Shown here: one piece after another, positions 2,502-45,186 of the stretch
Layout: every line of letters begins with the position of its first letter
Numbering within the stretch: the stretch's first letter is position 1
NCBI GenBank assembly: GCA_031289615.1
Contig: JAITPD010000063.1
Coordinates: 1-48,673, forward strand
Origin: Lactobacillaceae bacterium
GTDB lineage: Bacteria; Bacillota; Bacilli; Lactobacillales; Lactobacillaceae
DNA: 48,673 nucleotides
Direction: 5' to 3'
Program-made: the position numbers and the translations under genes
The notes under the pieces: generated by a model
What the model was told of the DNA's origin: nothing
Database searches by the model: none
Seen by the model: the letters and a program-made list of their open reading frames with translations, nothing else

Positions 2502-2807
2502 GTAACGCGGATTGCTAGTTATGTAATATTGTTCTAGGGTTGATCAGCTTCGCTAAAGATTCTTTACGTTTCGGATGGCCCTGCACGAGTCACGACGAAT
2601 GGCAAAATAATTTACCATTTTCACGGCGCTAAAGCCCGCGTGAAAAAGTTCGCCTAGATTCGGCAAGGGCTGGTTATCCGACGACAGAATCGCTACGCTG
2701 ATCAATCAAATAGAAAATTACCAAGATGTTCAGAAAAATATTGGACTTTACTTTAGCGAAGCCAGTCAAACAAAGCCCAATATTACACAACTAGCACAAC
2801 GCGTTAC
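2502..2807. repeat. Palindromic repeat, module A with long terminal inverted repeats (copy A1)
   Basis: A MITE-like unit between copB and mae. The outer arms 2502-2531 and 2778-2807 are 30-bp near-perfect inverted repeats containing GCTAGTT and GTAATATTG. The inverted match continues inward to GCTTCGCTAAAG near 2548-2559 and its complement near 2750-2762, giving arms of about 57 bp. The core module A lies at 2541-2706. Inside it are hairpins built on GGCAAAATAATTTACC (2601-2616) and TTCACG/CGTGAA (2619-2644). After the core, ACCAAGATGTT (2720-2730) matches the right end of module B, as if B had been deleted internally. No transposase is nearby. Confidence 0.85.
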
Positions 2808-2829
2808 TGTTTAGTAACAGGTTCTTTGC

Positions 2830-2850
2830 AACGTTAGGTAAGTTAACGTT
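2830..2850. promoter_or_regulatory. Inverted repeat upstream of the malic enzyme gene
   Basis: AACGTTA and TAACGTT form a perfect 7-bp inverted repeat separated by 7 bp, ending 67 bp before the mae start. A separate small hairpin, CTGTT..AACAG, precedes it at 2807-2820. The symmetry and position suit an operator for a malate- or redox-responsive regulator, but no regulator gene is adjacent, so the function is inferred. Confidence 0.3.
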
Positions 2851-2917
2851 ATGCATAAAAAATTCAAAAACGTATGCTATTCTATGGTTAATTTAAATAC
2901 ATTTGGAGGGTCCCATC

Positions 2918-4081
2918 GTGGATTATAATCAACGTGCATTAGAGGTACATCAAGCGTACCCAGGAAAGTTCGTGGTAAACAGTACAGTGAAATGTGAAAA
3001 TGCGGATGATTTAGCAACCGTTTATTCGCCAGGAGTCGCACAACCATGTCGAGAAATTTTGAAGAATCCCGCTGACGTTAACAAATACACAAGTCGCGCG
3101 CATACCGTTGCGGTGATTTCAGATGGTTCAGCCGTTTTGGGACTTGGGAATATTGGTGCATCAGCTAGTTTGCCAGTAATGGAAGGAAAGGCGATTCTCT
3201 TTAAGACGTTTGGAAACGTTGACGCGGTGCCTTTAGCATTGGACACGCAAGATGTTGACGAATTGGCGCAAACGATTATTAATTTGGCTCCAGCTTTTGG
3301 TGGAATTAATTTAGAAGACATTGCTTCACCAAAATGTTTTGAGTTAGAAGAACGCCTTGATGAAAAATTGGATATTCCTGTTTTCCACGATGATCAACAT
3401 GGAACGGCAATCGTTGTGGCTGCCGGACTCACGAACGCGTTGAAGGTTGTTGGTAAAGAATTTTCTGATATTAAAGTCGTCTTGAACGGTCCGGGAGCTG
3501 CTGGCACGGCGATTATTAAGATGCTCCAAGCGCTTGGCGTGACAAATATTATTGCAGTTGACGAATTTGGAATTCTATTTCCAGGGCGTGACAATCTAGT
3601 AGCGCAAAAAGTTGATCTGGCGCAAACGACGAATGCACAACAGTTGCAGGGGGATTTGGCACTTGCTGTCCAAGATGCAGACGTGTTCATTGGCGTTTCG
3701 ATTAAGAATGTTTTGACACCAGCAATGATTAAAAGCATGGCGGCTCAACCAATTGTTTTTGCCATGGCGAATCCTGAGCCTGAAATAGCTTATGATTTGG
3801 CGATGACAAGTGGAGTGGCAGTGATGGCGACTGGACGTTCAGATTATCCAAATCAAGTTAATAACGTGCTTGCATTTCCTGGAATATTTAAGGGTGCCTT
3901 GTCAGTGCAAGCGACTTCTATCACTACAGCGATGAAGTTAGCAGCCATTCGTGCAATTGCAGAGACAATTCCAGCAGAACAAGTTGATGCAAAAAATATT
4001 ATTCCTTCAGCGTTTGACGAAAATGTTGCTGATAATGTTGCGCATGCAGTTGCCAAAGCCTGGCTAAATGGAGAAAATTAA
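2918..4081 (+). CDS. mae: NAD(P)-dependent malic enzyme, short form
   Basis: Oxidative decarboxylation of malate to pyruvate with reduction of NAD(P)+; CitM-type members of the same family decarboxylate oxaloacetate, and I cannot exclude that. The N-terminal malic domain shows TVYSPGVA (catalytic Tyr region), KAILFK and the metal site FHDDQHGTA. The Rossmann domain follows with NGPGAAGTA. About 387 residues is the short bacterial form, unlike the roughly 540-residue malolactic enzyme. The reading frame is open further upstream from a TTG at 2903, but that TTG lies in the Shine-Dalgarno sequence TTGGAGGG; the GTG at 2918 sits 7 nt after it and is the better start. The stop codon abuts fumC, so the two genes are co-transcribed. 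Confidence 0.85.
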   Translation: MDYNQRALEVHQAYPGKFVVNSTVKCENADDLATVYSPGVAQPCREILKNPADVNKYTSRAHTVAVISDGSAVLGLGNIGASASLPVMEGKAILFKTFGNVDAVPLALDTQDVDELAQTIINLAPAFGGINLEDIASPKCFELEERLDEKLDIPVFHDDQHGTAIVVAAGLTNALKVVGKEFSDIKVVLNGPGAAGTAIIKMLQALGVTNIIAVDEFGILFPGRDNLVAQKVDLAQTTNAQQLQGDLALAVQDADVFIGVSIKNVLTPAMIKSMAAQPIVFAMANPEPEIAYDLAMTSGVAVMATGRSDYPNQVNNVLAFPGIFKGALSVQATSITTAMKLAAIRAIAETIPAEQVDAKNIIPSAFDENVADNVAHAVAKAWLNGEN

Positions 4082-5449
4082 ATGACGACTGAATATCGAA
4101 CAGAACGGGATTCTATGGGCGAAATCCAAGTTCCTAGCACAGCTAAGTGGGGTGCTCAAACTGAGCGAAGCCGACAAAATTTTAAAATTGGTAGTCAAAA
4201 GATGCCACTTGAATTAATTCATGCAATTGCTGCAATCAAGCAGGCGGCAGCAAAGGCGAATCAAGAAATTGGCAAGCTATCTGAGGACCGCGCCACGTCA
4301 ATTCAAAATGCTGCAGCGGCAATTGTGCGTGGAGAACACGATGATCAATTTCCGTTGGTGATCTGGCAAACTGGTTCTGGAACGCAAACCAACATGAACG
4401 TCAATGAAGTGATTGCGAACTTAACTCCGGATTCAGTTGCAGTTCATCCTAATGATCACGTGAACATGAGTCAGAGTTCAAATGACGTTTTCCCAAGTGC
4501 GATTCATGTAGCTGGGACATTGGTGATTGAACAGCAGTTGTTACCTGTGATGAAAAAAGTCATCACAACGTTACACCATCTAGAAGAGCAAAATTTTGAT
4601 TGTATTAAAATTGGGCGAACGCATTTACAAGATGCTACTCCAGTCCGGTTTAGCCAGGAAATCTCGGGTTGGCGCAGCGGGATTGAACACTCTTATCATC
4701 AACTAGAACTTGGTCTGACCGAGCTAAAACAATTACCATTGGGCGGAACAGCTGTTGGAACAGGCCTGAATGCTTCCCCAGCGTATACTAAGGCTGTGTT
4801 GGTAGCGTTAAGTGAAATTACGGACACATCATTTATTTCTGATGCGAACACGTTTCATGGTCTAGCCAATAAGGATGCGTTGGTGTTTGTGCATGGTGCG
4901 CTCAAGGGTTTGGCGGGTAATGCAATGAAGATGGCTAATGATATTCGCTGGATGGCGTCGGGACCACGTTCTGGCTTGGGTGAAATCACAATTCCGGCCA
5001 ATGAACCCGGTAGCTCGATCATGCCTGGAAAAGTCAATCCGACGCAATGTGAGGCGCTGACAATGGTGGCGGCTCAAGTCATGGGCAACGATTCGACTAT
5101 TGGGTTTGCGGCTAGTCAGGGTAATTTTGAGCTAAATGTTTTCTTGCCAGTCTTGGGATATAATTTTTTGCAGTCGATTCAATTGCTGAGCGAGGCTTTG
5201 GTTTCATTTGAAGAAAATTGTCTACAAGGTTTGCAGGCCAATGAAGCACGTATGCAAGAATTGGTTGACCAGTCATTGATGTTGGTGACAGCTTTGAATC
5301 AACATATTGGGTACGATAACGGTGCAAAGATTGCTAAGACAGCCTTTGCGCAAAACATCACGCTCATGGAGGCTGCGATTGATTCTGGTTTGGTGACGGA
5401 TGAACAATATGATGAATGGGTTCGACCAGTTGCGATGGTTGATAATTAA
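4082..5449 (+). CDS. fumC: Class II fumarate hydratase
   Basis: Interconverts fumarate and malate in the cytoplasm by the iron-independent class II mechanism. The signature GSSIMPGKVNP of the fumarase/aspartase superfamily is present, as are TGSGTQTNMNVNEV and GRTHLQDATP. Length 455 fits FumC. The ATG follows the mae stop directly, with GGAGA inside the end of mae as ribosome site, so translation is probably coupled. Together with mae it links fumarate, malate and pyruvate, presumably to use malate/fumarate or to handle redox balance in a bacterium with no full TCA cycle. Aspartase would lack this exact context but shares the fold. Confidence 0.92.
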   Translation: MTTEYRTERDSMGEIQVPSTAKWGAQTERSRQNFKIGSQKMPLELIHAIAAIKQAAAKANQEIGKLSEDRATSIQNAAAAIVRGEHDDQFPLVIWQTGSGTQTNMNVNEVIANLTPDSVAVHPNDHVNMSQSSNDVFPSAIHVAGTLVIEQQLLPVMKKVITTLHHLEEQNFDCIKIGRTHLQDATPVRFSQEISGWRSGIEHSYHQLELGLTELKQLPLGGTAVGTGLNASPAYTKAVLVALSEITDTSFISDANTFHGLANKDALVFVHGALKGLAGNAMKMANDIRWMASGPRSGLGEITIPANEPGSSIMPGKVNPTQCEALTMVAAQVMGNDSTIGFAASQGNFELNVFLPVLGYNFLQSIQLLSEALVSFEENCLQGLQANEARMQELVDQSLMLVTALNQHIGYDNGAKIAKTAFAQNITLMEAAIDSGLVTDEQYDEWVRPVAMVDN

Positions 5450-5473
5450 TAGATTTAGAAAGAAGAAAATATT

Positions 5474-8080: not shown

Positions 8081-8106
8081 GGTGTTGAATAAATGATGTC
8101 GCTTTG

Positions 8107-8173
8107 GTTGATCAGCTTTGCTAAAGATTCTTTACGTTCGGATTAGCATTATGCAAGTGAAAAATGACCAAGC
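8107..8173. repeat. Remnant of the A-B palindromic repeat
   Basis: The left half of module A (8107-8142, ending in TTTACGTTCGGAT) is joined directly to the right end of module B (AAGTGAAAAATGACCAAG, near 8154-8171). Everything between is missing, so it cannot fold like intact copies. The rest of the 281-bp gap between the pseudo-ATPase and rny holds no convincing gene; an open frame across it is an artefact of the remnant. Confidence 0.75.
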
Positions 8174-8361
8174 TCTTTTTGCAACCAACACCATACGTAA
8201 GCCAACGTTAAGCTACACGTATTTTCTTATGAATCCGTTCACATCACTTTCATTGACACAATTGCGTAAAACGTCTAAAATTAAAAACGTGTTAATAAGC
8301 GCAAAATAAATTATTAGACTACTAAGTTGACTGAAATTAACTTATTAGACAGGAGACAAAG

Positions 8362-9924
8362 ATGAACTTCACTATAGTCATCCTTGCGTCGCTTGTCGCA
8401 ATCGTAATCGGCTATGTTGCTGGAATGATTCTCACTAAAACTAAGATTGAGAATAACTTAAAGCAAACACGCCAAACTGCAACAGACATCACAAATCAAG
8501 CACGGACAGATGCCGAGGCACTTAAAAAGAGTGCTTTGGTAGAGGCTCGTGATGAAAGCCAACAATACCAAGCTAAAATTGAGCATGAACTTCAAGATCG
8601 TCGTCAAGAAGTAAAAGTGCAAGAAGAACGTTTGGTAAGTCGTGAATCTGTTTTGGATCGGAAGGACGCTTCTTTGCAAAAACGCGAAGAAAGTATTTCT
8701 GAAAAAGAAACTAAAGTCGATCAACAAAAACAAAGTGTGAAGGATAAGCAAGCACGGGCGGACGAATTAGTTGCCGAACGTGAAGCAAAACTTGTTGAGG
8801 TGGCCGGAATGGGTCGCGTCGATGCGCAAGAACTAATCCTTGCAGAGACCAAGGATGAATTGGTTTCTGAACGCGCAATGTTGATTAAAGAGAGTGAAGA
8901 AACTGCAGCAACTGAAGCTGACAAACGTGCTAAGAACTTGGTTGTTCAAGCAATTCAACGTTCAGCAGCAGACATGGTTGCAGAAACAACGGTATCCGTT
9001 GTTGCATTGCCAAATGATGATATGAAGGGCCGCATTATCGGTCGTGAAGGACGTAATATCCGCGCGATTGAAACGGTCACAGGAATTGACTTAATCATTG
9101 ACGACACTCCTGAAGCAGTTGTGTTGAGCGGATTTGATCCCGTTCGTCGTGAAATTGCTAAGCGAGCTTTGGAGTCATTGATTTCAGACGGTCGAATTCA
9201 CCCAGCTCGAATTGAAGAGATGGTTGAAAAGGCCCGTAAAGAGATGGATGAGCATATTCGAGAAGTCGGAGAACAAACGGTCTTTGATCTTGGATTGCAC
9301 AATCTCCATCCTGATTTGGTTAAAACCATTGGTCGGATGAATTATCGGACTAGTTATGGACAAAATGTTTTGGTTCACTCAGTTGAAGTTGCTAAACTAA
9401 CAGGCATGTTGGCTGCCGAGTTAGGTGAAGATGTTACGCTTGCGAAGCGCGCAGGATTATTACACGATATTGGTAAGGCGATTGATCATGAAGTTGATGG
9501 TTCACACGTGGAATTGGGAGTCGAATTGGCAACCAAGTATCACGAACGATCAACTGTGATTAACGCAATTGCTTCCCATCACGGAGATGTTGAGCCAGAA
9601 TCGATTATTGCGGTTTTGGTGGCAGCAGCGGATTCTATTTCAGCTGCTCGTCCAGGAGCTCGTTCAGAATCTCTTGAAAATTACGTTCAACGATTGCAAC
9701 AACTTGAAGGCATTGCTAATGGCTTTAATGGAGTTGAAAAGTCGTTTGCCATCCAGGCAGGACGTGAAGTTCGAGTTATGGTTGAACCAGCTGCTCTCTC
9801 TGACGTTGAAGCTACGGTTTTGGCACGTGACATTAAAAATCAAATTGAACACGATTTGGATTATCCAGGACACATTAAAGTCACGGTTATTCGCGAATCA
9901 CGTTCGGTTGAATATGCTAAGTAG
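8362..9924 (+). CDS. rny: Ribonuclease Y
   Basis: Membrane-anchored endoribonuclease that starts mRNA decay in many Firmicutes. An N-terminal helix (about 4-24) is followed by a long charged coiled coil (about 30-190). The KH domain carries [15 protein letters not shown] and the HD domain carries [10 protein letters not shown] with downstream ASHHGD metal ligands. Length 520 is standard. The start ATG has AGGAGA 6 nt upstream. The gene stands alone here; the usual neighbours cinA-recA are not in view. A terminator follows. Confidence 0.95.
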
Positions 9925-11228: not shown

Positions 11229-13220
11229 ATGGAAAAGAAAACAATCATTATCATCAGTAGTGTTGCGGCGGCAGTTGTTATCTTGGGTGGGGGAGCTGCA
11301 ACTTACTATACGATGACTCAGACTGATGCTGGAAAAGCAAAACGAGTTGCAAAGAATTACGTTGCAAATTTTAAGGTGCAAAAGTTTGACCAAGTGTTAA
11401 AAAATGCAGAAGCTAAAACAGTGAAGGCCTATAAGTTAAAGGCTAGCCAACCAGCAGCGGATATGAAAGCTGATTTCAAGTATTTTGATGTGACTAAGAT
11501 TGATGTTGGTGCGCTTAAGACTAAGAAAAACAGTCTCGGGAATTATACTTTCCAATTTACAGCAACTCTCACAACTCCAATTGGCAAGATCAAGGATCAA
11601 ACGTATTCAATTCCAGTGAAGATTGTTGATGGTAAGGCTAAGATTCAATATTCTCCAAGTTTAATTTTGCCTGATTTGAAAAAGGGTACTGACGTTTATA
11701 TCGCAAAAGATGGTGGCGAACGGGGCCAAATTTTAGACCGTAATGGCGAGGTTTTGGCTGGTTCGGTTGAGACTAAGGAACTCCAAATTGTGCCAAAGTA
11801 TTTCTTAGATGATCAAGGCAATATTGATGAGACAAAGGTCGATGCAATTGCTACCAAGTATAATGCTAGCGCCGACGATATTAAGAAGGGGATTGAAGAT
11901 TATAAGGATCATCCTGATTGGGGTTATCCAGTTAAGACGCTGGGAGCTGACGATTATCAAGGCGATGACGATGGTGATGGTGCGACAGTTGTTGCTAATT
12001 ATCAACGCAATTATCCACTTGGGGCGGCTGCGGCTCAATTGATTGGCTACACAGGAGCTGTGACTAAAGAAGATATTGATAAGGATCCACTTCTAGGCAG
12101 CAATGACATTATTGGGCGAGATGGTCTGGAGTTGACGCTTGATTCGAAGCTCCGTGGTAAGGAAGCCATCAAGTATCAAATTATTGATAAAAACGGTACC
12201 GTTATCAAAAACCTGGTCGAACAAAAGTTTGTGAAGGGCCAAGATATTAAGCTAACAATTGATGCAAACGTGCAAAAAAATGCGTATGAAGGATTCAACA
12301 ATGTGCCGGGATCAGGAGTAATTGAGACTCCGGGAACGGGTGAGTTGCTAGCATTGGTATCATCACCTTCATATGATCCAAATACGTTATCAGAGAACTA
12401 TAACTCAATTTCAAGTAACCCAGATGCGCCATTTATCGCGCGCTATGCGAAAGGATATGCACCTGCTTCAACATTTAAGCAGGTCACAGCTGCGATTGGC
12501 TTGGACAACGGAACTCTTAATCCAAGTGAAGCGTTGACGATTGAAGGCAAAAAGTGGGCCGAATACAGTGTGACGCGGGTTAACTCAGATACGAGCGTCA
12601 ATTTACAAACGGCGCTTTGGCATTCTGACAACATTTATTTTGCCAAGCAAGCGCTAAAGATCGGGCGCGAAACATTCCAAGATGCATTGTTGAAGAAGTT
12701 TACTTTTGGCAAGGATTACGATTTGCCAATTGCGATGAAAGCTCCGTCGTTTAGTAATGACGGCAAGCTGGATAGTGATAAACAGCTAGCAGACACAGCG
12801 TACGGTCAGGGCCAAATGTCGGTGAACCCGATTGAAATGGTAACGATGTACAATTTCTTAGACAATGATGGAACGATTGTGATGCCAAAGTTGTTGCTAG
12901 ACGCGAAGACTACTAAGATTGAGAATGCGGTCAAGCCTGAAAACGCTAAGATTATCTTGGATGATGAAGTTGGTGTCGTTGAGAATTCTGATGGTTACGC
13001 GCACAATTTGTATAACGCAAATTATAAGATTGGTGCCAAAACTGGAACGGCCGAAGTCGGGAATGGGAATCAAAATTCGTTAGTTTCGGTGCATGATATT
13101 CAAAACAAGAAGTTTAGTGCTTTGTTCATTGTTGAAAATTCAGTAGTGGATGGGAATGATCATAATCCATTGGCTGATCACGTGTCAAAGCAAGTAGTGG
13201 ATTACTTGGAAAATAATTAA
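11229..13220 (+). CDS. Class B penicillin-binding protein with MecA-like N-terminal domain
   Basis: Peptidoglycan D,D-transpeptidase outside the membrane, anchored by one helix (about 5-27). Residues 30-145 resemble the NTF2-like MecA_N domain found in MecA, enterococcal PBP5 and B. subtilis PBP3. A dimerisation region with GGERGQILDRNG follows, then the transpeptidase domain with S414-T-F-K417, S466-D-N468 and K604-T-G606. Length 663 fits that subgroup, whose members often bind beta-lactams weakly; whether this one does cannot be read from sequence alone. Its start lies in the ribosome-binding region formed by GAAAGGAAC at the end of garK. A palindromic repeat follows the stop. Confidence 0.88.
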   Translation: MEKKTIIIISSVAAAVVILGGGAATYYTMTQTDAGKAKRVAKNYVANFKVQKFDQVLKNAEAKTVKAYKLKASQPAADMKADFKYFDVTKIDVGALKTKKNSLGNYTFQFTATLTTPIGKIKDQTYSIPVKIVDGKAKIQYSPSLILPDLKKGTDVYIAKDGGERGQILDRNGEVLAGSVETKELQIVPKYFLDDQGNIDETKVDAIATKYNASADDIKKGIEDYKDHPDWGYPVKTLGADDYQGDDDGDGATVVANYQRNYPLGAAAAQLIGYTGAVTKEDIDKDPLLGSNDIIGRDGLELTLDSKLRGKEAIKYQIIDKNGTVIKNLVEQKFVKGQDIKLTIDANVQKNAYEGFNNVPGSGVIETPGTGELLALVSSPSYDPNTLSENYNSISSNPDAPFIARYAKGYAPASTFKQVTAAIGLDNGTLNPSEALTIEGKKWAEYSVTRVNSDTSVNLQTALWHSDNIYFAKQALKIGRETFQDALLKKFTFGKDYDLPIAMKAPSFSNDGKLDSDKQLADTAYGQGQMSVNPIEMVTMYNFLDNDGTIVMPKLLLDAKTTKIENAVKPENAKIILDDEVGVVENSDGYAHNLYNANYKIGAKTGTAEVGNGNQNSLVSVHDIQNKKFSALFIVENSVVDGNDHNPLADHVSKQVVDYLENN

Positions 13221-13420
13221 CGCACTGTACTTTGTTGTTCAGCTTCGCAATAGATTCTTTACGTTCGGATGGCCCTACACGAATCTGAATGAAAGGCGAA
13301 ATAATTCGCCAATTCCACTAACTGTTAGGTCCTGATGTTAGTATCATGGTTCATCCAGATTCGGCAGGGACTGGTCATCCGACGACAGAATCGCTTCGCA
13401 GATCAAGCAAAGTGCGTAAC
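13218..13420. repeat. Palindromic repeat module A, copy A2 (variant hairpin)
   Basis: Starts within the stop region of the PBP gene. The outer ends TAACGCACT and AGTGCGTAA are inverted repeats. The shared arms TTCAGCTTCGC..GATTCTTTACGTTCGGAT and ATCCGACGACAGAATCGC bracket two hairpins. Here hairpin 1 is GGCGAAATAATTCGCC and hairpin 2 is a CACTAAC/GTTAGT type, both different from A1 yet still pairing. Confidence 0.85.
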
Positions 13421-13603
13421 CCCTTGTCATTTTAGTAAAAGCGTGGTGGATTGAGATGATGATAGTAGGTGGAAACGCGAGGTTGCGGCACCAATTCGAC
13501 TAAATTTCGGCCTGCCGAAATTAAAAGTTGAATGGGACCGTGTCGCCACTTACTATCTTTATCGAAAAGTCACCACGCAAGTGAAAAATGACCAAGGTGT
13601 TTC
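13420..13603. repeat. Palindromic repeat module B, copy B1
   Basis: One long imperfect hairpin. Outer ends are CCTTGTCATTTTAG and AAAAATGACCAAGG. The arms GCGTGGTGG and CACCACGC, then GATAGTAGGTGG and CCACTTACTATC, then ATTCGACT and AGTTGAAT, close on the apex TTTCGG-CCTG-CCGAAA. It follows A2 directly. The rest of the gap to 13835 (about 13604-13835) shows no convincing gene; a 60-residue open frame there overlaps the repeat end. Confidence 0.85.
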
Positions 13604-13835
13604 GTGGCCATAGTAAGGCGTTTCCAACAGAGTATGTAAAAACGGTTTTGCTAAAAGAGTCGTGGACAAATAGTGTTCGCGCCTTTTTTGCTATTTGCTT
13701 AAATTATTGGCCCGAAGCAACCAAACTTTGGAACAAGCTTCTTTTAAGGTGCATAATGTTAAATAATTAATAGAATGTTATGGACGTAACAGTAGAATGA
13801 GACGCAACAATAGAAGAAAGTAGTGGGGATTAAAA

Positions 13836-14953: not shown

Positions 14954-14965
14954 CACATAATACTA

Positions 14966-15322
14966 TGGAGCCGAGGGGAGTTGAACCCCTGTCCTAACAT
15001 CTCGGCACTAACACATCTACGTTCATAGTCGATTGTTTTGAGTTTCGCATTATGCACGCCAATCAACAAGGCGATCATTTCTGCTAATCTGATTATCCTC
15101 TTCGCAACCACTTCAGATGGGAGGGTTACGCGCAGGTCACAATCTGATGACTAGTCGACGCTTGTGACTACAGCTACAACTAGTTAGGCACGCTGGTTTT
15201 TAAGCAGCGAAAGCCATATTGTTTGAATTTTTTGCAGTTAATTCGTCTGAGTGGATTATAGGGCCACAACCCCTAAACGCAGTGCTAGCTCGAACAATAT
15301 CAGTCGATTCCGTAACGACCCC
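14966..15322 (-). ncRNA. ssrA: Transfer-messenger RNA
   Basis: Rescues stalled ribosomes by adding a degradation tag. The 5' end GGGGTCG pairs with CGGCTCC at the 3' end, closing the tRNA-like acceptor. The T arm with GGGGTTCAACTCCCC is clear, and position 73 is A with no encoded CCA. The tag frame lies at 15200-15235 (minus) and reads AKNSNNMAFAA followed by TAA; the AFAA end suits ClpXP-type recognition. Several pseudoknot-like palindromes follow the tag. A -10 TATACT (minus, near 15337-15342) lies upstream with a poor -35. Confidence 0.95.
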
Positions 15323-17720: not shown

Positions 17721-17984
17721 GTTGGTCAGCTACGCTAAAGATTATTTACGTTCGGATGGCCCTGCACGATTCATTATGCGGTTTGTTAGCGATTTATCGC
17801 TTACCAAAACACGATCCGAAGTACTAAGTCGCTCAGCTGTGTCATACAGCTGAGCGACTTAGTAACGGAGGTGGTTCGAATGGCAAATTAATTTGCCATT
17901 TTCACGGCGCTAAAGCTCACGTGAAAAGGTTCGCCTAGATTCGGCAAGGGATGGCCATCCGACGACAGAATCGCTTCGCTGAAT
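17721..17984. repeat. Palindromic repeat module A, copy A3, carrying module C
   Basis: Same arms as A1, ending with ATCCGACGACAGAATCGC. Hairpin 1 is GGCAAATTAATTTGCC and hairpin 2 is TTCACGGCGCTAAAGC with CACGTGAA. About 100 bp of module C (17776-17872) interrupt the left arm after CCTGCACGATTC. Confidence 0.85.
17776..17872. repeat. Module C insertion in copy A3
   Basis: Contains a small hairpin AGCGATTTATCGCT and a very strong one, CTAAGTCGCTCAGCTGT paired with ACAGCTGAGCGACTTAG over a 5-base loop. A diverged copy lies in reverse at 26249-26346. Confidence 0.8.
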
Positions 17985-17993
17985 GCACTAGTA

Positions 17994-18180
17994 AACATCT
18001 TAGCCATTTTATTCAAAGCGTGGTGGATTGAGATGATGATAGTAGGTGACCAAGCGAGGTAGCGGCACCAATTCGACTAAATTTCGGTTCGCCGAAATTA
18101 AAAGTCGAATGGGACCGTGTCGCCACTTACTATTATTATTGAAAAGCCACCACGCAAGTGAAAAATGACTAAGTTGTTTC
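17994..18180. repeat. Palindromic repeat module B, copy B2
   Basis: Same hairpin as B1 with apex TTTCGG-TTCG-CCGAAA. The outer ends are CATCTTAGCCATTTT and AAAAATGACTAAGTTG. The central stem is the C-G form ATTCGACT/AGTCGAAT where B1 has a G-T pair. Confidence 0.85.
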
Positions 18181-18203
18181 ATGTATATAATGATTTAATT
18201 ATT

Positions 18204-19836: not shown

Positions 19837-21288
19837 ATGGCTAATAAAAAGCACATGTCGACTAATTTGATTTATTTCTTTGGTGCCTTAGGTGGACTTT
19901 TGTTCGGTTACGATACAGGAGTTATCTCAGGAGCCATGTTGTTCATTGGAAAGGAACTGGGCATCAAGGCCGGTTCGTTTGAAGATGGATTTATCACCGC
20001 TTCAGTTTTGTTGGGGGCCATTTTGGGAGCTGCAATTATCGGGCCAATGTCTGATAAGTTCGGCCGTAAGAAGTTGCTCTTGACTGCATCAATTATTTTC
20101 TTCATCGGAGCTTTAGGTTCTGGTATTGGAATTAACTATGAAGTGTTGGTTTCATCACGTGTCTTGCTTGGAATTGCCGTTGGAGCTGCTTCAGCTTTGA
20201 TTCCAACATATTTGGCTGAATTATCACCAGCCGATAAGCGTGGTGGCGTTGGAACATTATTCCAATTGATGATCATGACTGGTATCTTCCTTGCTTATGT
20301 CTCAAATGAATGGCTTTCACCACACGGTTTGATTGGTTTGGGTGAAAACATTGGCTGGCACTGGATGCTTGGATTGGCAGCAATTCCAGCAGCTATCTTG
20401 TTCTTAGGTGGATTGACTTTGCCAGAATCACCACGTTTCTTGGTTAAGAAGGGTCAAATTGACGAAGCCCACAGCGTTTTGTCACAATTTAATTCAGATG
20501 AAAAGCTGGTTGAAGAAGAATTGCACGACATTAAGTTGCAAGCTTCAATTCCATCAGGTGGATTTAAAGAATTGTTTGGAGTAATGGCTCGTCCAGTGTT
20601 GATCATGGCACTTGGTTTGGCTGTCTTCCAACAAGTTATGGGATGTAATACGGTTTTGTACTATGCCCCAAAGATTTTCATCTCAGCTGGATTTAGCGAA
20701 CACTTTGCATTGCAATCTCACATTGTTATCGGAATCTTTAACGTGTTGGTAACGGTTGTTGCTGTTAAGATTATGGATAAAATCGATCGTAAGAAGATGT
20801 TGACTTATGGTGCCATCGGAATGGGTGTGTCACTGTTATTGATGTCAACTGCTATGCTTGTTTTGAAGGCCGGAGACGGAAACACGGGATCATGGATCTG
20901 TGTTATCGCTTTGACTTTGTATATTGCCTTCTTCTCAGCAACTTGGGGACCAGTTATGTGGGTTATGATCGGTGAAGCCTTCCCATTGAACATTCGTGGA
21001 TTGGGTAACTCATTTGGAGCCGTGATGAACTGGACTGCTAACTTTGCGGTCTCACAATCATTCCCAATGCTGTTGATTGCCTTTACTCCAAATCATGCAA
21101 CAAATGCTGAAGGACAAGGAATTGCTAAGTTGTTTGTGATTTACGGAGTACTTTGTTTCGTGGCAATCTGGTTCATTGCTAAGTTTACTTTTGAAACTCG
21201 TAACCGGACTTTGGAATCTTTGGAAGCAGACTTGCGTTCAAAGGCTCATGCAAAGGGTTATAAGGAAGAGGGAGAACCAACTGTCTAA
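19837..21288 (+). CDS. MFS sugar:proton symporter (sugar porter family)
   Basis: Twelve-helix permease of 483 residues. Sugar porter marks are GYDTGVISGA in helix 1, DKFGRKK in the 2-3 loop, PESPRFL after helix 6 and ETRNRTLE at the end. The closest well-known types are xylose, arabinose and galactose permeases; the exact sugar cannot be told. The frame is open from 19687, but that stretch contains the cre site and promoter. GGGAGGAAG sits 9 nt before the ATG at 19837, which starts MANKKHMS, so I place the start there. Downstream is a terminator. Confidence 0.88.
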   Translation: MANKKHMSTNLIYFFGALGGLLFGYDTGVISGAMLFIGKELGIKAGSFEDGFITASVLLGAILGAAIIGPMSDKFGRKKLLLTASIIFFIGALGSGIGINYEVLVSSRVLLGIAVGAASALIPTYLAELSPADKRGGVGTLFQLMIMTGIFLAYVSNEWLSPHGLIGLGENIGWHWMLGLAAIPAAILFLGGLTLPESPRFLVKKGQIDEAHSVLSQFNSDEKLVEEELHDIKLQASIPSGGFKELFGVMARPVLIMALGLAVFQQVMGCNTVLYYAPKIFISAGFSEHFALQSHIVIGIFNVLVTVVAVKIMDKIDRKKMLTYGAIGMGVSLLLMSTAMLVLKAGDGNTGSWICVIALTLYIAFFSATWGPVMWVMIGEAFPLNIRGLGNSFGAVMNWTANFAVSQSFPMLLIAFTPNHATNAEGQGIAKLFVIYGVLCFVAIWFIAKFTFETRNRTLESLEADLRSKAHAKGYKEEGEPTV

Positions 21289-21318
21289 ACGGTTGGCACT
21301 ACTTTAATTTAAAAATTA

Positions 21319-21349
21319 GGTCGGGACAAAATTTGTTCGGGCCTTTTTT
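21319..21349 (+). terminator. Terminator after the sugar porter
   Basis: GGTCGGGACAAA pairs with TTTGTTCGGGCC, then TTTTTT. Confidence 0.8.
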
Positions 21350-21390
21350 ATGATTTTAATATTTAGACAAATTATGAATTATTTAAAACA

Positions 21391-21568
21391 CATTGGTCAT
21401 TTTTAACTTGTGTGGTGGTCTTTCAATAATGATAGTAAGTGGCGACACAGTCCCATTCGACTTTTAATTTCGGTAGCCCGAAATTTAGTCGAATTGGTGC
21501 CGCTACCTCGCTTGATCACCTACTATCATCATTTCAATCCACCACGCTTTGAATAAAATGACCAATTT
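21391..21568. repeat. Palindromic repeat module B, copy B3 (reverse orientation)
   Basis: Reverse complement of the B1/B2 arrangement. The apex on the element strand is TTTCGG-GCTA-CCGAAA. Outer ends are ATTGGTCATTTT and AAAATGACCAAT, a 12-bp perfect inverted repeat. Confidence 0.85.
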
Positions 21569-21570
21569 TG

Positions 21571-21746
21571 CTGTTCAGCGCAGCGATTCTGTCGTCGGAT
21601 GACTAAGCCCTTGCCGAATCTAGGCGAAAATTTTTTCACGCGCGCTTTAGTGCCGTGAAATTGGCAAATTATTTTGCCATTCGGCATGAATCGTGCAGGG
21701 TAAATCCGAACGTAAAGAATCTTTAGCGAAGCTGATTAAATAAACT
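21571..21746. repeat. Palindromic repeat module A, copy A4 (reverse orientation)
   Basis: Complete module A without C. On the element strand hairpin 1 is GGCAAAATAATTTGCC and hairpin 2 is TTCACGGCACTAAAGC with GCGCGTGAA. It follows B3 directly, so the pair is an inverted A-B composite. Confidence 0.85.
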
Positions 21747-21817
21747 ATATTAACTACGCAAACATACATTATAGAATCTATTACGGTTAGGTGAACGAAA
21801 ATAACTAGATAAGATAA

Positions 21818-21873
21818 TTTTTATGCAACTAAAACTAATTTTATGCATTTTTAACAAAACTATTGCATAAAAT
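21818..21873. promoter_or_regulatory. Three TTTTATGCA operator-like repeats
   Basis: TTTTATGCA occurs at 21818-21826 and 21839-21847, spaced 21 bp (two helical turns), and inverted as TGCATAAAA at 21864-21872. The third copy overlaps the -35 hexamer of the next gene. The pattern resembles weak ArgR/AhrC boxes; identity is inferred. Confidence 0.45.
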
Positions 21874-21891
21874 TACATTTAGGCATATACT
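21863..21891 (+). promoter_or_regulatory. Promoter of the amino-acid ABC transporter gene
   Basis: -35 TTGCAT (21863-21868), 17-bp spacer, -10 TATACT (21886-21891), 37 bp before the start. Confidence 0.75.
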
Positions 21892-21928
21892 CATAAACAT
21901 GATTTCAAGAAGAGAGTAGGATAGTAAA

Positions 21929-24318: not shown

Positions 24319-24334
24319 ATTATGCGTAAAAGTT

Positions 24335-24372
24335 GGAGTAAAATACAATAATTTGTATTTTGCTCCCTTTTT
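24335..24372 (+). terminator. Strong terminator between response regulator and kinase
   Basis: GGAGTAAAATACAA pairs with TTTGTATTTTGCTCC around a very short loop and is followed by CTTTTT. It is strong enough to separate the two genes into independent transcripts. Confidence 0.85.
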
Positions 24373-24389
24373 AATCACAAAGTTGAAAC

Positions 24390-24398
24390 TGGTATAAT
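24390..24398 (+). promoter_or_regulatory. Extended -10 promoter of the histidine kinase
   Basis: TGGTATAAT at 24390-24398 lies after the terminator and 46 bp before the kinase start. A -35 is poor. The same TGGTATAAT-type element occurs before several genes here. Confidence 0.6.
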
Positions 24399-24444
24399 TA
24401 AGAAGCAATAGTGATGAAATCCCGAAGTTTAGGAAATTAAAAAG

Positions 24445-25899
24445 ATGAAAATGATGTATCAACAAATGCTCGCGTTTTTTACCGTCATCATGGCGGCATT
24501 ATTAATCGTGGGTGTATTGTTCACGCAATTTACAACTAAAATGGTTGAAGATAACACGTATAAGCAATTGAATCGTTTTGCTGTGGCGATTGCGGAGGAA
24601 GCAATGCGGTACAAGGCAGGCAACGGTGATTTTGCTTATTTTGACACGCGCGGTCTTGATATCGATTTATCTTTATTAGAAGAACAAAATATGTCATTTA
24701 CGCTCTATGATGGCAGCGAGAAGGTCATTTACCCTACTTCTGGCAGCTCAGTTCGTGCAAATATTACAGCAAATCAATGGAAAAAGTTAAATGACCATAA
24801 GATTGTGCACACGCGCGTGGATGCTTCGGATAAGGCTAACAAAGAAGATTCAAATACGATGGGTGTGATGAAGCCGTTCTTCGACAATAAAGATCAACTG
24901 ATTGCCGTCGTAGTTACTCGTGCAAATGTTTCGACTGTGGATGATAATATGGATATGCTGCGCCGAAACTTAGCAATTGCCTTTTTGGTGGCCGGAATTG
25001 TCGCTGTTATGCTGAGCTTTATCGTGTCACAGCTGATTGTTAATCGTTTGCGTTTGATTCAGTTAGTGACGAGACAGGTTGCTTCGGGTGATTACAAGGC
25101 GATGGTTGAGACGACCACAAATGACGAAATCGGTGCATTGGCAGTCGACGTTAACACGATGACGCGGGCGTTGGATGATCAAGAACAAGAGATTAAGCGC
25201 CAAGAAGAACGCCGGAAGGAATTCATGGCAAATGCGTCTCATGAAATGCGGACGCCTTTGACGACCATCTCTGGAATTGTTGAAGGTTTGCAATATGATG
25301 TGATTCCTGAAGATGAAAAGATGCATTCGTACGACATGATTAAAAACGAAGCAGATCGTCTGACCCGTTTGGTAAAAGATAATTTGGACTATGAACGCCT
25401 CCGTCAAAATAAGGTTGTTTTGAGTAAGAAGGAGTTTAATGTTTTGCCGGTGATTGATAATTTGGTCGAACAGCTGTCGGGTAAGGCGGAAGTCGCGGGT
25501 GATCAGTTGATTTTTGAAAGCCATGGGACTGAACCAGTGATTGCTTTGGCAGATCAGGATCGCTTCATTCAAATTGTCTTTAACATCATTAACAACGCCA
25601 TTCAGTTTACTGAAAACGGCACAATTAAGATTAAGGCTTGGCGCGAAGACGGATTTGCAGCCTTTAGTGTGGCAGATTCTGGAATTGGAATGACTGCTGA
25701 CCAAGTTAAAAATATTTGGGAACGTTATTATAAAGCAGATGAGTCGCGGACGGTGAAGGGTGAATCTGGATTGGGAATGGCGATTATTCGTCAACTGATT
25801 GAGGTGCATGATGGAACGATTGATGTCCATTCTGAGTATGGTCACGGAACAACATTTACTGTGCGAATCCCGGATGTGCAAAAGGACGTGAACGATTAG
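24445..25899 (+). CDS. Membrane sensor histidine kinase
   Basis: Two membrane helices (about 10-30 and 172-197) bracket an extracellular sensor of about 140 residues with no obvious known motif. A HAMP domain (about 198-250) is followed by a short coiled coil, the HisKA box with H266 in ASHEMRTPLTT, then the ATPase domain with NIINNAIQFT (N box), DSGIGMT (G1) and GESGLGMAI (G2). Length 484. The presumed partner is the upstream regulator. The signal is unknown. A long reverse-strand open frame under it is a codon-pattern shadow. Confidence 0.92.
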   Translation: MKMMYQQMLAFFTVIMAALLIVGVLFTQFTTKMVEDNTYKQLNRFAVAIAEEAMRYKAGNGDFAYFDTRGLDIDLSLLEEQNMSFTLYDGSEKVIYPTSGSSVRANITANQWKKLNDHKIVHTRVDASDKANKEDSNTMGVMKPFFDNKDQLIAVVVTRANVSTVDDNMDMLRRNLAIAFLVAGIVAVMLSFIVSQLIVNRLRLIQLVTRQVASGDYKAMVETTTNDEIGALAVDVNTMTRALDDQEQEIKRQEERRKEFMANASHEMRTPLTTISGIVEGLQYDVIPEDEKMHSYDMIKNEADRLTRLVKDNLDYERLRQNKVVLSKKEFNVLPVIDNLVEQLSGKAEVAGDQLIFESHGTEPVIALADQDRFIQIVFNIINNAIQFTENGTIKIKAWREDGFAAFSVADSGIGMTADQVKNIWERYYKADESRTVKGESGLGMAIIRQLIEVHDGTIDVHSEYGHGTTFTVRIPDVQKDVND

Positions 25900-25910
25900 T
25901 GGGTCTGGCG

Positions 25911-26110
25911 GTGTGTTAGTTGTGAAACAGATTGCTCATTTTTCACTGGCGCGGTGACTTTTCGATAAAGATAGTAAGTGGCGACATGGTCCCATTCAAC
26001 TTTTAATTTCGGCAGGCCGAAATTTAGTCGAATTGGTGCCGCTACCTCGCGTTTCCACCTACTATCATCATCTCAATCCACCACGCTTTTACTAAAATGA
26101 CAAGGTGTTA
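25911..26110. repeat. Palindromic repeat module B, copy B4 (reverse), with outer end
   Basis: Begins 11 bp after the kinase stop with GTGTTAGTTGTGAAACA, an outer end also found at 41.12 kb. The hairpin matches B1 almost base for base, with apex TTTCGG-CCTG-CCGAAA on the element strand. Confidence 0.85.
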
Positions 26111-26390
26111 CGCACTTTGCTTGATCTGCGAAGCGATTCTGTCGTCGGATGACCAGTCCCTGCCGAATCTAGGCGAACCTTTTCACGCGTGCTTTAGCGC
26201 CGTGAAATTGGCAAATTATTTTGCCATTCGACATGAATCGAGCAGGGAGCTTCGTTACTAAGCAGTTCAGCCGGTTTCACCGTCTGACCAGCAAAGTACT
26301 GCGCATCGTGTTCTGATAAGCGATGAATCGCAAACAGAACGCATAAATCCGAACGTAAAGAATCTTTTGCGAAGCTGATTAAACAAACGC
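26107..26390. repeat. Palindromic repeat module A, copy A5 (reverse), carrying module C
   Basis: Starts TGTTACGCACTTTGCTTGATC, the same outer end as A2. Arms and both hairpins are present. Module C (26249-26346) lies between the left arm and CCCTGC on the element strand, a different junction from A3. Confidence 0.82.
26249..26346. repeat. Module C insertion in copy A5
   Basis: Reverse complement matches 17776-17872 with substitutions: TTATGCG, ATCGCTTA, AACACGAT, AGTAC and CTTAGTAACG are shared. The strong central hairpin of the other copy is diverged here. Confidence 0.7.
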
Positions 26391-26404
26391 CAAGCTTTTA
26401 ATGT

Positions 26405-26462
26405 AACGCCTTTATCATTTTATTGACAAACCGCCACGCCAGTGAAAAATGGCTAAGGCGTT
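26405..26462. repeat. Mini module B (ends only)
   Basis: A 58-bp unit with inverted ends AACGCCTTTATCATTTT and AAAAATGGCTAAGGCGTT. It keeps the CCACGCcAGTG inner end of B but has lost the hairpin core. It lies beyond A5, close to the galM promoter region. Confidence 0.7.
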
Positions 26463-26512
26463 CCATAATTCACGCGTTAGTGGTATACCAATTTCATGAT
26501 AAAACCATCTTT

Positions 26513-26526
26513 GAAAGCGCTTAATC
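26513..26526. promoter_or_regulatory. Possible partial cre site upstream of galM
   Basis: TGAAAGCGCTTAAT matches the 5' part of a cre box but not the final CA. A -10-like TAAAAT follows at 26531-26536. Also nearby is the perfect palindrome TGGTATACCA (26481-26490). Weak evidence. Confidence 0.3.
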
Positions 26527-26578
26527 ATGTTAAAATAGAAGATGTAGATATGAATTTTTTTAAGGAAGGATTTACGCA

Positions 26579-27613
26579 ATGACAATTAAAGTGACTGACT
26601 TTGGTGCAATGCCAAACGGAGAACAAATCCAACATGTCGTGATTCAAAACGCCAATGGCCATCAACTTGGCTTGGTTTCTTTTGGAGCTTCATGGCAATC
26701 ATTTATCACAGCTGAAGGCAAGGAACTGGTCTTAGGGTTTAATGACGCTGCTGGCTATCTTAACAACGGCTATTATTTAGGGAATGCAGTTGGCCGGGTC
26801 GCAGGGCGCCTTGATTCAGCAACATTTGATTTAAATGGAAAAACGTATAAGTTGGATGCAAACGAAGGCAAGAACACTCTTCATGGCGGACAAAACAACT
26901 TTTCACATAAGAACTGGGATATTGCCAACCTTGACGAAGCAAAAAACAGTGTAACGTTTGCCACAACGATGACTGAAGATGAAGATCATTTTCCAGGAAC
27001 GATGGGGACAACAGTGACTTATACTTTGACTGATGATAATCAAGTGCGGATTGATTTCAGTGCAACTTCAGATCAAGATACGTTGTACAATCCAACTTCA
27101 CACGTGTACTTCAACGTGGCCGGGTTAAATACTGACGCGCGCGAACTTGAGTTAAAGTTAAATTCACCACGGCACCTAGAATTCCGTGATGATCAAATTC
27201 CAACTGGGAAGCGTTTGGAGACAGCTGGAACGCCATTTGACTTCCAAACTGCAATCAAGATTGGTGACAATATCGCAAAGATTGATTCAGATGCTTTTGA
27301 TAAGAAGTTTGATGATGCCTTTGAAATTGTGCACCAAGCTGGAGAACCTGATGCGATTTTGAAGGATCTAAAGTCTGGTCGGGCTGTTGAGATGACGACG
27401 GATCGTAATGCAGTGATCTTCTTTATCACCAACCCAGAAGTTGATCTACACGATGACCAAGAGGCTTTTCTTGCTGAGCATCCATTTAACGGAGTCGCTT
27501 TGGAAGCGCAAACTTTGTCAGATGCCATTCACAATCCTGAGTTTGGTGACATTGTTTTGCCAGCAAACCAAAATCAACACTATACAACAACGTACGCATT
27601 TAAGAATATTTAG
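26579..27613 (+). CDS. galM: Aldose 1-epimerase (galactose mutarotase)
   Basis: Interconverts alpha and beta anomers of glucose/galactose in the cytoplasm. The active-site histidines appear in NTLHGG and NPTSHVYFN, and the catalytic glutamate in VALEAQTLSDA near the C-terminus. Length 344 is typical. AAGGAAGGA precedes the ATG. pgi starts 19 nt downstream, so the two sugar-isomer enzymes form an operon that feeds hexoses into glycolysis or the phosphoketolase route. Confidence 0.92.
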   Translation: MTIKVTDFGAMPNGEQIQHVVIQNANGHQLGLVSFGASWQSFITAEGKELVLGFNDAAGYLNNGYYLGNAVGRVAGRLDSATFDLNGKTYKLDANEGKNTLHGGQNNFSHKNWDIANLDEAKNSVTFATTMTEDEDHFPGTMGTTVTYTLTDDNQVRIDFSATSDQDTLYNPTSHVYFNVAGLNTDARELELKLNSPRHLEFRDDQIPTGKRLETAGTPFDFQTAIKIGDNIAKIDSDAFDKKFDDAFEIVHQAGEPDAILKDLKSGRAVEMTTDRNAVIFFITNPEVDLHDDQEAFLAEHPFNGVALEAQTLSDAIHNPEFGDIVLPANQNQHYTTTYAFKNI

Positions 27614-36249: not shown

Positions 36250-36261
36250 GTTGTTGGACTG

Positions 36262-36424
36262 CACACAAAAACGTTCCACCATGCTCTATAAAAACGCCTT
36301 CTAGAACTTTGAACCAGGTGATTCTAAGTACACCTCTTATTGTCACGTTGCACGCAACAAACGAGTTGCCCTTAGCTCACTGGTTCAATTTTGTGCTTCA
36401 CACAAAAACGTTCCACCATGCTCT
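36262..36424. repeat. 26-bp direct repeat flanking a hairpin upstream of potA
   Basis: The identical 26-bp sequence beginning CACACAAAAACGTTCCACC occurs at 36262-36287 and 36399-36424. Between them, TTGAACCAG and CTGGTTCAA-like arms (near 36309-36388) form an inverted repeat, with GTTGCACGCAAC inside. The second copy contains the -35 hexamer of the potA promoter, so the repeat may be a regulator site or a duplicated promoter region. Confidence 0.75.
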
Positions 36425-36440
36425 CTAAACGTGGTACAAT
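36411..36440 (+). promoter_or_regulatory. Promoter of potABCD
   Basis: TTCCAC (36411-36416), 18 bp, TACAAT (36435-36440) preceded by TGG, 30 bp before the start codon. Confidence 0.55.
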
Positions 36441-36470
36441 TTTTATATTATGTGAAAGGTGGGTCTGGTA

Positions 36471-41050: not shown

Positions 41051-41112
41051 CGATTATACTTACTTTAAGTTGACTATCAAATCAGTGAACGAATCGGTAT
41101 AATGAAGATACT

Positions 41113-41181
41113 ACGCGTTATGCTAGTTGTGAAACATCTTGGTCAAGCAAAGCCCAATATTACACAACTAACACTATGCGT
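41113..41181. repeat. Minimal palindromic repeat (ends of A-B only)
   Basis: A 69-bp element. ACGCGTTATGCTAGTTGTG (41113-41131) and its inverted partner CACAACTAACACTATGCGT (41163-41181) match at 15 of 19 positions. The middle GAAACATCTTGGTCA equals the outer end of B and AAGCCCAATATTACACAAC equals the right end of A1 at 2.78 kb. It lies between a TATAAT (41098-41103) and the cyclophilin start, so it would be transcribed in the leader. Confidence 0.8.
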
Positions 41182-41207
41182 TTACTATATAAATTACGGA
41201 GACGGAC

Positions 41208-43041: not shown

Positions 43042-43075
43042 AACAAAACCTCTTTCAAAACATATTTGTAACTTC

Positions 43076-44673: not shown

Positions 44674-44679
44674 AGTTTT

Positions 44680-44917
44680 CATGCGATGAGTCGAGAAGAT
44701 CTTTCTTAGATCTTTCATTAAACGGCCGACATAGACACCCGCATTGGTGGTCGGTGCAAGGAACGTTGTGGAACCGAACTTGCTGCACATGACTAACTTC
44801 CAGTAATGGAATGGTGTACGTTGACTGATTGGGTAAAACCAATCACCTGAGTTAACGCAGGTCTTACGTTAACATGCCAAATATAAAACCTCGTGATATT
44901 TATATTGCGGGGTTTTT
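44680..44917 (+). ncRNA. Candidate structured small RNA, unassigned
   Basis: A non-coding stretch of about 240 nt from a 17-bp-spaced promoter to a terminator (AAAACCTCG with CGGGGTTTTT, 44885-44917). It contains AGATC/AGATCT (44697-44713), CCGAC..CACC with GGTG..CGG (about 44723-44747), TTCCA/TGGAA (near 44801-44814), TGATTGG/CCAATCA (near 44824-44843) enclosed by CGTTGAC/GAGTTAACG, and CCTG/CAGG. It does not look like RNase P, SRP, 6S, tmRNA or T-box RNA: GAGGAAAGTCC, GGAAG, and AGGGTGGTACCGCG type marks are missing. No frame with a ribosome site is present. Function unknown; some divergent 6S or Lacto-usp-type RNA cannot be excluded. Confidence 0.5.
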
Positions 44918-44929
44918 GTTAGCCGTTTT

Positions 44930-44938
44930 TGGTATAAT
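44930..44938 (+). promoter_or_regulatory. Extended -10 promoter upstream of yvlD-hprK
   Basis: TGGTATAAT lies 14 bp after the RNA terminator. Transcripts from here would carry the whole A6 palindromic repeat in their leader. Confidence 0.55.
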
Positions 44939-44960
44939 TGAGAGATAATAATACGTGTGA

Positions 44961-45186
44961 GGCTGGTTGTTTTAATATTGTTCTACGGTTGATCAGAGTA
45001 GCGATTCTGTCGTCGGATGTAATTTCCTGACGAATCGGGTGCACCATTTCACTAACACCAGGAGCCAACAGTTAGTGAAATTGGCGAATTATTTCGCCTT
45101 GTACCTCGATTCGTGTAGGGAAATCCGAACGTAAAGAATCTTTAGCGAAACTGATCAATCAAATGACAATATTTTAACTAACCATC
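44961..45186. repeat. Palindromic repeat module A, copy A6 (reverse), with terminal repeats
   Basis: Outer ends GGCTGGTTGTTTTAATATTG (44961-44980) and CAATATTTTAACTAACC (from 45167) are inverted repeats related to those of A1. The core has the arms GATTCTGTCGTCGGATG and ATCCGAACGTAAAGAATC. The hairpins are TTTCACTAAC/GTTAGTGAAA and GGCGAATTATTTCGCC, the same variant type as A2. It lies in the leader of yvlD. Confidence 0.82.

What the first reader, a model, noticed from the sequence alone, without database searches (positions are those of the whole stretch)
2502..45186. A family of modular, long palindromic intergenic repeats (A, B, C) in nine places
Seen directly: related palindromes occur at 2.5, 8.1, 13.2, 17.7, 21.4, 25.9, 26.4, 41.1 and 45.0 kb, always between genes and often beginning within about 30 bp of a stop codon. 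They share ends, arms and hairpins, exist as full, composite, mini and remnant forms, and have no transposase. This is denser than usual for a bacterial MITE family and I cannot match it to a named family from memory (BOX, RUP, ERIC and REP have different sequences). It could be a mobile ssDNA-type hairpin element mobilised by a transposase elsewhere, or a recruited RNA element.
Basis: partly seen in the sequence, partly recalled or inferred. Interest (0 to 1): 0.85.

Follow-up and report, generated by a model that had tools for sequence, protein, structure and literature searches.

The report
Mobile hairpin repeats behind gene ends
A genus of lactic-acid bacteria carries families of small mobile repeats that sit just behind genes and fold into hairpins whose paired arms differ completely between species while a small unpaired core stays the same, which suggests that the folded strand itself does a job that has not been described.

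Summary
Full copies have ~19-bp terminal inverted repeats and, in 8 of 20 two-ended copies, an exact 6-bp (once 8-bp) target duplication. The syntenic congener G015 lacks them at all seven gaps compared. Between the ends lie two irregular hairpin modules, A and B, whose more stable strands point outward.

A covariance model of B found the same core in seven of 28 species of the genus, in three lineages with otherwise unrelated sequence. Helices turn over by paired changes; the internal loops and a 5-nt bulge persist, and in nine of 57 cores an extra hairpin domain sits exactly in that bulge. No Rfam, phage or plasmid match; five of 397 family genomes match, all of this genus. Copies end at stop codons (window species) or abut terminators in one orientation (sister species). 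Reverse transcriptase is absent from all seven genomes, Y1 transposase from six; the mobilising enzyme was not found.

Best reading: a new MITE-type family carrying conserved, strand-specific hairpin modules. RNA rather than ssDNA is inferred; the core's job is unknown.

The parts
2504..2805 (+). A-only copy: terminal repeats 2504-2523 (+) and 2786-2805 (-), A module 2535-2712
   Evidence: two-ended, 302 nt
8103..8178 (+). remnant: left 42 nt of A (8103-8144) fused to the right end of B (8153-8178)
   Evidence: (I10, D8)
13219..13606 (+). composite: A of the divergent subfamily 13234-13411, B 13426-13602; stop codon of the upstream gene (13218-13220) overlaps the left edge
13459..13560 (+). 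conserved core hairpin of B (R1 match)
17721..18183 (+). composite: A 17721-17773 and 17877-17982 split by a ~103-nt inserted module, B 18005-18181
18036..18137 (+). conserved core hairpin of B (R1 match)
21386..21744 (-). composite: B 21386-21562, A 21572-21739
21428..21529 (-). conserved core hairpin of B (R1 match)
25905..26485 (-). composite: terminal repeat 25905-25924, B 25925-26101, A 26116-26247 and 26345-26387 split by a ~97-nt inserted module, then a second B-end-like piece 26438-26463
25967..26068 (-). conserved core hairpin of B (R1 match)
41112..41182 (.). mini form: the two terminal repeats with ~30 nt between them
   Evidence: (D10)
44989..45177 (-). A-only copy of the divergent subfamily

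Best explanation
A family of non-autonomous, MITE-type DNA elements of one Lactobacillaceae genus. A full copy in the window species is TIR-A-B-TIR, 235-546 nt in the two-ended copies. A and B are long irregular hairpins; the better-folding strand of A reads leftward and that of B rightward, so both modules have their 3' ends at the outer edges. An unidentified transposase acting in trans moved the elements with a fixed 6-bp duplication of a target starting with TA (shown: ends and duplications; inferred: the enzyme). They settle directly behind genes, at stop codons in the window species and behind intrinsic terminators in the sister species, with the module's 3' end towards the gene end (shown as a location bias; whether by targeting or selection is open). 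The core of B (GCGA, internal loop GG(A)YAG x YG, three free base pairs, CA x GA, CCA/UGG, and a 5-nt bulge) is kept in three lineages while its helices are replaced by paired changes; this means that the folded single strand is under selection (strongly indicated). I take it to be an RNA that binds a partner needed by the element or tolerated by the host (inferred, weakest step).
For: TIRs: (34 hits in the sample against 4 in one shuffle). Absence from G015 at seven orthologous gaps and genome-wide. Core in 7 of 28 genus genomes: 109, 84, 13, 4, 3, 3 and 2 matches. Paired changes: covariation 0.408 against 0.154 shuffled and at most 0.121 slid, 0.434 against 0.151 and at most 0.117 with the third lineage. 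Boxes nearly invariant in 57 + 28 copies; CG/CG changed to GA/TC on both sides in the same 9 of 28. Strand: core strand folds better than its complement in 50 of 57 and 28 of 28; for A the complement in 61 of 66. Extra domain exactly in the bulge in 9 of 57, outer helix and core unchanged in the two folded. Fixed A-B order in 23 of 24 B copies of the sample; all 7 close opposite-strand core pairs seen in G007 and both in the third lineage are divergent too. Gene ends.
Against: No mobilising enzyme found: DDE_Tnp_1 and IS982-type DDE absent from this genome, other DDE families not tried; the genome is a 65-contig draft. 12 of 20 two-ended copies show no exact duplication. Strand asymmetry is weak in the third lineage (10 of 15, mean -1.8 kcal/mol), where the fitted pairs hold 18 A.C against 1 G.U, mostly one fixed column. 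Copies within a genome are related, so counts are not independent events. No expression data. In G007 the core is antisense to the adjacent gene, so a simple 3'-UTR role does not fit.
Confidence: 0.5

Rival explanations
1. Ordinary palindromic MITEs: complementarity of the arms comes from their origin and from inter-arm (quasi-palindrome) correction during replication; the core has no function.
For: Most paired changes are complete on both sides with few G.U intermediates, as templated correction would give; some are shared as whole blocks between copies.
Against: Correction would erase, not preserve, the asymmetric loops; these are near-invariant in three lineages whose helices share no sequence. 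The folded strand is preferred over its complement in two lineages. The extra domain sits exactly in the bulge.
Confidence: 0.2
2. REP/BIME-like single-stranded DNA elements mobilised by a Y1 (RAYT-type) transposase: asymmetric hairpins in inverted pairs behind genes.
For: Inverted pairing of asymmetric hairpins, 3' extragenic position, preference for one folded strand.
Against: Y1_Tnp found in 3 of 28 genus genomes and in only one (G023) of the seven with elements; 0 in this genome and in G007. TIRs and 6-bp duplications. Modules are far longer than REPs (recalled).
Confidence: 0.07
3. SINE-like retroelements: the structured RNA is reverse-transcribed into T-runs of terminators, its A-rich 3' end pairing with the T-run.
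For: In G007 a terminator faces the 3' side of the core in 20 of 35 and the 5' side in 2 of 30, so that the A-rich 3' edge meets the T-run; conserved RNA-like fold; group IIC introns are known to choose terminators (listing and recall).
Against: RVT_1 is absent from all seven element-bearing genomes (present in 3 of 28, all without elements). The window species has TIRs and fixed-length duplications and no A-rich edge. No Rfam group II intron match.
Confidence: 0.08
4. Host-recruited 3' elements: the hairpins end or protect the mRNA of the gene they follow, as BOX, REP or SPRITE repeats are thought to do.
For: Stop-side gap median 41.5 nt against 149 nt on the start side. In the window species only 9 of 42 facing stops have a terminator before the element and 9 beyond it, against 99 of 158 element-free gaps with one, so the element may replace the terminator.
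Against: Positions are not conserved. Orientation to co-directional genes is 19:13. In G007 the adjacent gene reads antisense into the core (22 towards, 8 away).
Confidence: 0.15

Closest known systems
BOX elements of Streptococcus pneumoniae and S. suis (PMC3049150, passages seen)
   Same: Modular composite repeats with variable middle modules, predicted RNA stem-loops, intergenic, probably mobilised in trans, 2-Mb low-GC Gram-positive genome; repeats insert into one another.
   Different: Own modules, ends and core; target duplications visible here, none clear there per the passages seen; core conserved in three species lineages through helix turnover; the two modules fold on opposite strands. 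BOX letters were not compared directly.
MITEs in general (review PMC10969869, passages seen)
   Same: Short, multi-copy, no ORF, terminal inverted repeats, target duplications, stable stem-loops.
   Different: A strand-specific hairpin core with conserved internal loops shared by species whose elements have no other similarity; orientation-specific position at terminators in one species.
REP/BIME and RAYT (recalled)
   Same: Asymmetric hairpins in inverted pairs behind genes.
   Different: No Y1 enzyme in six of seven genomes, TIRs and target duplications, modules of 100-180 nt.
Group IIC introns (listing; recalled)
   Same: Structured RNA, position behind terminators.
   Different: No RT in the seven genomes, no group II intron match in Rfam, not spliced as far as can be seen.
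SPRITE and RUP of S. pneumoniae (PMC3049150, passages)
   Same: Small interspersed stem-loop repeats, probably mobilised by an IS in trans.
   Different: Single-module; sequence not compared here.

Membership tests
MITE | short non-coding element with terminal inverted repeats in many copies | tested here: met
   17 two-ended copies of 235-546 nt; 45 groups in 439.6 kb
MITE | target-site duplication of fixed length | tested here: met
   8 of 20 exact (7 at 6 bp, 1 at 8 bp); permuted maximum 4 at 6 bp. Only shown for the window species; not resolved in G007 or the third lineage
MITE | autonomous element with matching ends in the same genome | tested here: inconclusive
   no TIR pair around a transposase in the loci held; PF01609 and PF13612 absent from this genome; other families not tried
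BOX element | boxA/boxB/boxC sequence | not tested
   no BOX sequence was fetched; not an Rfam family that rang
REP/BIME with RAYT | Y1 transposase of the RAYT type in the genome | tested here: not met
   0 in this genome and G007; 1 of 7 element-bearing genomes
group II intron or other retroelement | reverse transcriptase present, group II catalytic RNA | tested here: not met
   RVT_1 0 of 7; no Rfam match
known RNA family | match to a covariance model of Rfam 15 | tested here: not met
   gathering on the whole window: only tmRNA, two tRNAs and Ref68; E-value mode on 21280-26600 and on nine loci: only sub-threshold chance hits
IS982-derived MITE | IS982-type transposase in the genome | tested here: not met
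   0 in this genome; one sub-cut-off hit in G007

The most novel reading that the evidence does not exclude
A mobile structured RNA: the core is a new RNA motif, about 60-110 nt, that binds a conserved partner (host protein, ribosome, RNA polymerase or the mobilising enzyme). The element spreads as a DNA transposon but is selected through its transcript, and each insertion behind a gene end presents one functional hairpin outward on each side, whichever way it lands. Related elements in sister species keep nothing but this RNA core.
Probability: 0.25. Interest if true: 0.85.

Novelty: new variant of a known kind. Interest (0 to 1): 0.62.

Why it matters
MITE hairpins are usually explained as by-products of palindromic DNA. 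Here the paired arms turn over completely between species while unpaired positions, an asymmetric bulge and the folded strand are kept, so selection on the folded strand can be tested directly. If true, it adds a new RNA motif to a genus of lactic-acid bacteria and gives a natural mutagenesis set (57 + 28 core copies collected here, 193 R1 matches in two genomes) to find its partner. It also offers a case where a mobile element sits at gene ends with base-level precision.

Tried and rejected
Retroelement: rejected as the leading view because RVT_1 is absent from the seven genomes. REP/RAYT: rejected on Y1. IS982 and DDE_Tnp_1 as mobilisers of the window species: not found; the idea of IS982 came from recalled end and duplication lengths. 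TIR pairs flanking a transposase in the loci held: 11 chance-like pairs with ordinary ORFs or other copies, no transposase recognised by eye (no family search made on them). Known RNA: no Rfam match. Phages, plasmids and viral contigs: no match. Base-exact empty sites against G015: intergenic DNA too diverged; the 2.5-kb place could not be compared because its downstream gene has no G015 match. A gene-context count for the third lineage failed (pattern matched nothing). First reading of the target duplication as 4-5 bp was replaced by 6 bp after shifting the repeat start by one base. The genus name could not be determined; the named relative is only 'Lactobacillaceae bacterium isolate Pq454_bin64', and a paper search for it gave nothing relevant (listing). 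The G.U: A.C counts for A (59:4) rest on a structure predicted on that same strand and are not used as evidence.

Papers: PMC3049150 and PMC10969869 were seen as passages found by terms; all others only as search listings. No paper describing these repeats appeared in those searches.
Full report
What is there. The window is one 48.7-kb contig of a 2.01-Mb, 65-contig draft genome, 95.6% complete. Repeats lie at eight places. Two modules recur. A is about 178 nt (reference 2535-2712) and B about 180-200 nt (reference 21370-21570, read on the minus strand). In the sample, 23 of 24 B copies have A beside them in the same order and orientation; among 96 distinct copies collected, 63 hold both, 30 A only and 3 B only. 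Outside them lie terminal repeats close to ACGCGTTGTGCTAGTTGTG. Mini forms consist of the terminal repeats alone (41112-41182).

How many, and where. In 439.6 kb there are 45 element groups, which extrapolates to about 200 per genome; none lies mostly inside an ORF of 100 aa or more. With co-directional genes the A strand agrees with the upstream gene in 19 and disagrees in 13. Measured from the edge of the A/B match, the stop-side gap has median 41.5 nt (n = 42) and the start-side gap 149 nt (n = 36). Of 67 terminal-repeat ends, 15 have an ORF stop within 160 nt upstream, 14 of them within 12 nt. Of 42 stops facing an element, 9 have a terminator before it and 9 beyond it; of 158 element-free gaps of 60 nt or more, 99 have one.

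Mobility. Of 20 copies with both ends recognisable, 7 have an exact 6-bp direct repeat in register and one an 8-bp one; none has 3, 4, 5 or 7 bp. Permuted right flanks give a mean of 0.59 and a maximum of 4 in 5000 trials at 6 bp. The register was settled after a first pass in which 12 of 20 had at least 4 bp (permuted mean 1.44, maximum 6). Exact duplications all begin with TA. The closest syntenic congener, G015, carries orthologous genes on both sides of seven of the eight places and has no element in any of these gaps, nor any match elsewhere. In the third lineage (G003, G004, G013, G023, G027) three places are occupied in one species and empty or reduced to a remnant in others whose flanks are mostly 92-98% identical (86% for one flank); exact duplications could not be read there.

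The conserved core. A DNA search with A finds nothing in the other 59 genomes tried, 27 of them of the genus. B finds short matches in one congener, G007 (29 matches at E up to 0.1, best 6e-7; five other congeners have one weak hit each above 0.01). The exact core pattern occurs 89 times in the window genome and 20 times in G007, and in none of the other 395 family genomes drawn. A scan of one genome per species for 84,980 species with a slightly relaxed core found it only in the G007 assembly, 'Lactobacillaceae bacterium isolate Pq454_bin64' (29 stretches; the window's own genome may be left out there). A covariance model from 36 copies (R1) then found the core in seven of 28 genus genomes: 109 in the window genome, 84 in G007, 13, 4, 3, 3 and 2 in five further species (at most 131 candidates scored per genome). 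A second model with the third lineage (R2) matched 5 of 397 family genomes, all of this genus (G004 and G023 were not in the draw and only 9 candidates per genome were scored, so distant weak relatives could be missed).

What the core looks like. From outside in: a helix of about 13 pairs, a 5-nt bulge on the 5' side, GCGA/UCGC, an internal loop GGUAG x UG (GGACAG x CG in the third lineage), three pairs free to change (CGG/CCG, GAG/CUC, GGG/CCC, GGA/UCC), CA x GA, CCA/UGG, and an inner hairpin of free sequence. In 28 G007 copies the same nine carry GA on the 5' side and TC on the 3' side. Pair counts: covariation score 0.408 against 0.154 (shuffles) and at most 0.121 (slid partners) on 36 sequences; 0.434 against 0.151 and 0.117 on 29 sequences of all three lineages. 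In nine of 57 window-species cores an additional hairpin domain of about 130-170 nt replaces the bulge; in the two folded, outer helix and core keep their pairing.

Strand. Folded freely as RNA, the GCGAGG strand of B beats its complement in 50 of 57 window-species and 28 of 28 G007 copies (the nine domain-carrying copies, whose flank is the domain, are among the 57). For A the reverse holds: the complement of A as written is better in 61 of 66. So A and B point away from each other. The third lineage shows little preference (10 of 15, mean -1.8 kcal/mol), and its fitted pairs hold 18 A.C and 1 G.U, 15 rows of it at one fixed column pair. In the first two lineages the fitted pairs hold 34 G.U and 3 A.C, 16 of the G.U from one fixed pair.

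Same architecture elsewhere. Among the G007 matches listed (the list is cut), seven opposite-strand pairs lie within 700 nt and all seven are divergent, with 263-468 nt between cores. Both opposite-strand pairs seen in the third lineage are divergent as well. In G007 an intrinsic terminator faces the 3' side of the core in 20 of 35 copies and the 5' side in 2 of 30; random non-coding positions give 60 of 600. The gene on the 3' side reads towards the core in 22 and away in 8. In the third lineage the 3' flank holds such a terminator in 7 of 18, control 59 of 600.

What it is not. No Rfam family reaches threshold on the repeats. No match in 50,697 phage and 72,556 plasmid records with the window copy or the third-lineage copy, nor in plasmids with a G007 copy, and none in viral contigs by pattern. 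Reverse transcriptase is absent from the seven element-bearing genomes (G004 is only 66% complete), Y1 transposase from six of them, DDE_Tnp_1 and IS982-type transposases from the window genome.

Reading. The ends and duplications are those of a transposase-moved MITE-type element; the enzyme is unknown. What is unusual is inside: a hairpin core that survives complete replacement of its helices in three lineages, with preference for one strand in two of them. Copy-correction between palindrome arms could keep arms paired, but would remove the asymmetric loops rather than keep them. I therefore hold that the folded strand is functional. RNA is more likely than ssDNA because no ssDNA transposase is present in six of seven genomes, but this is inference. 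Why the elements sit at gene ends, by targeting or by selection against other positions, is not settled; the orientation bias in G007 is the best hint of targeting.

Noticed in passing
window 36254-36292 and 36391-36429: Two 39-nt direct repeats, 90% alike, 137 nt apart, between the ORFs ending at 36202 and starting at 36459 (D11). Unrelated to the A/B repeats.
   Followed up: no
window 44682-44774: Rfam match to Ref68 (Lacto-3 RNA) above gathering, directly upstream of the 45.0-kb element.
   Followed up: no
window 14963-15322: tmRNA gene with tag AKNSNNMAFAA.
   Followed up: no
window 8362-9924: RNase Y gene with an element remnant just upstream.
   Followed up: no
L182, L201, L172, L189, L179: Third-lineage elements carry further large structured modules besides the core, and G023 and G027 hold different modules at one orthologous place.
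   Followed up: partly
G007 contig starts and ends: Many G007 cores lie about 300-550 nt from contig ends, as if the assembly broke inside the divergent pairs.
   Followed up: no
L233-L239: The segment between the two cores of G007 pairs differs from pair to pair, so the halves may be independent insertions behind two convergent genes.
   Followed up: partly
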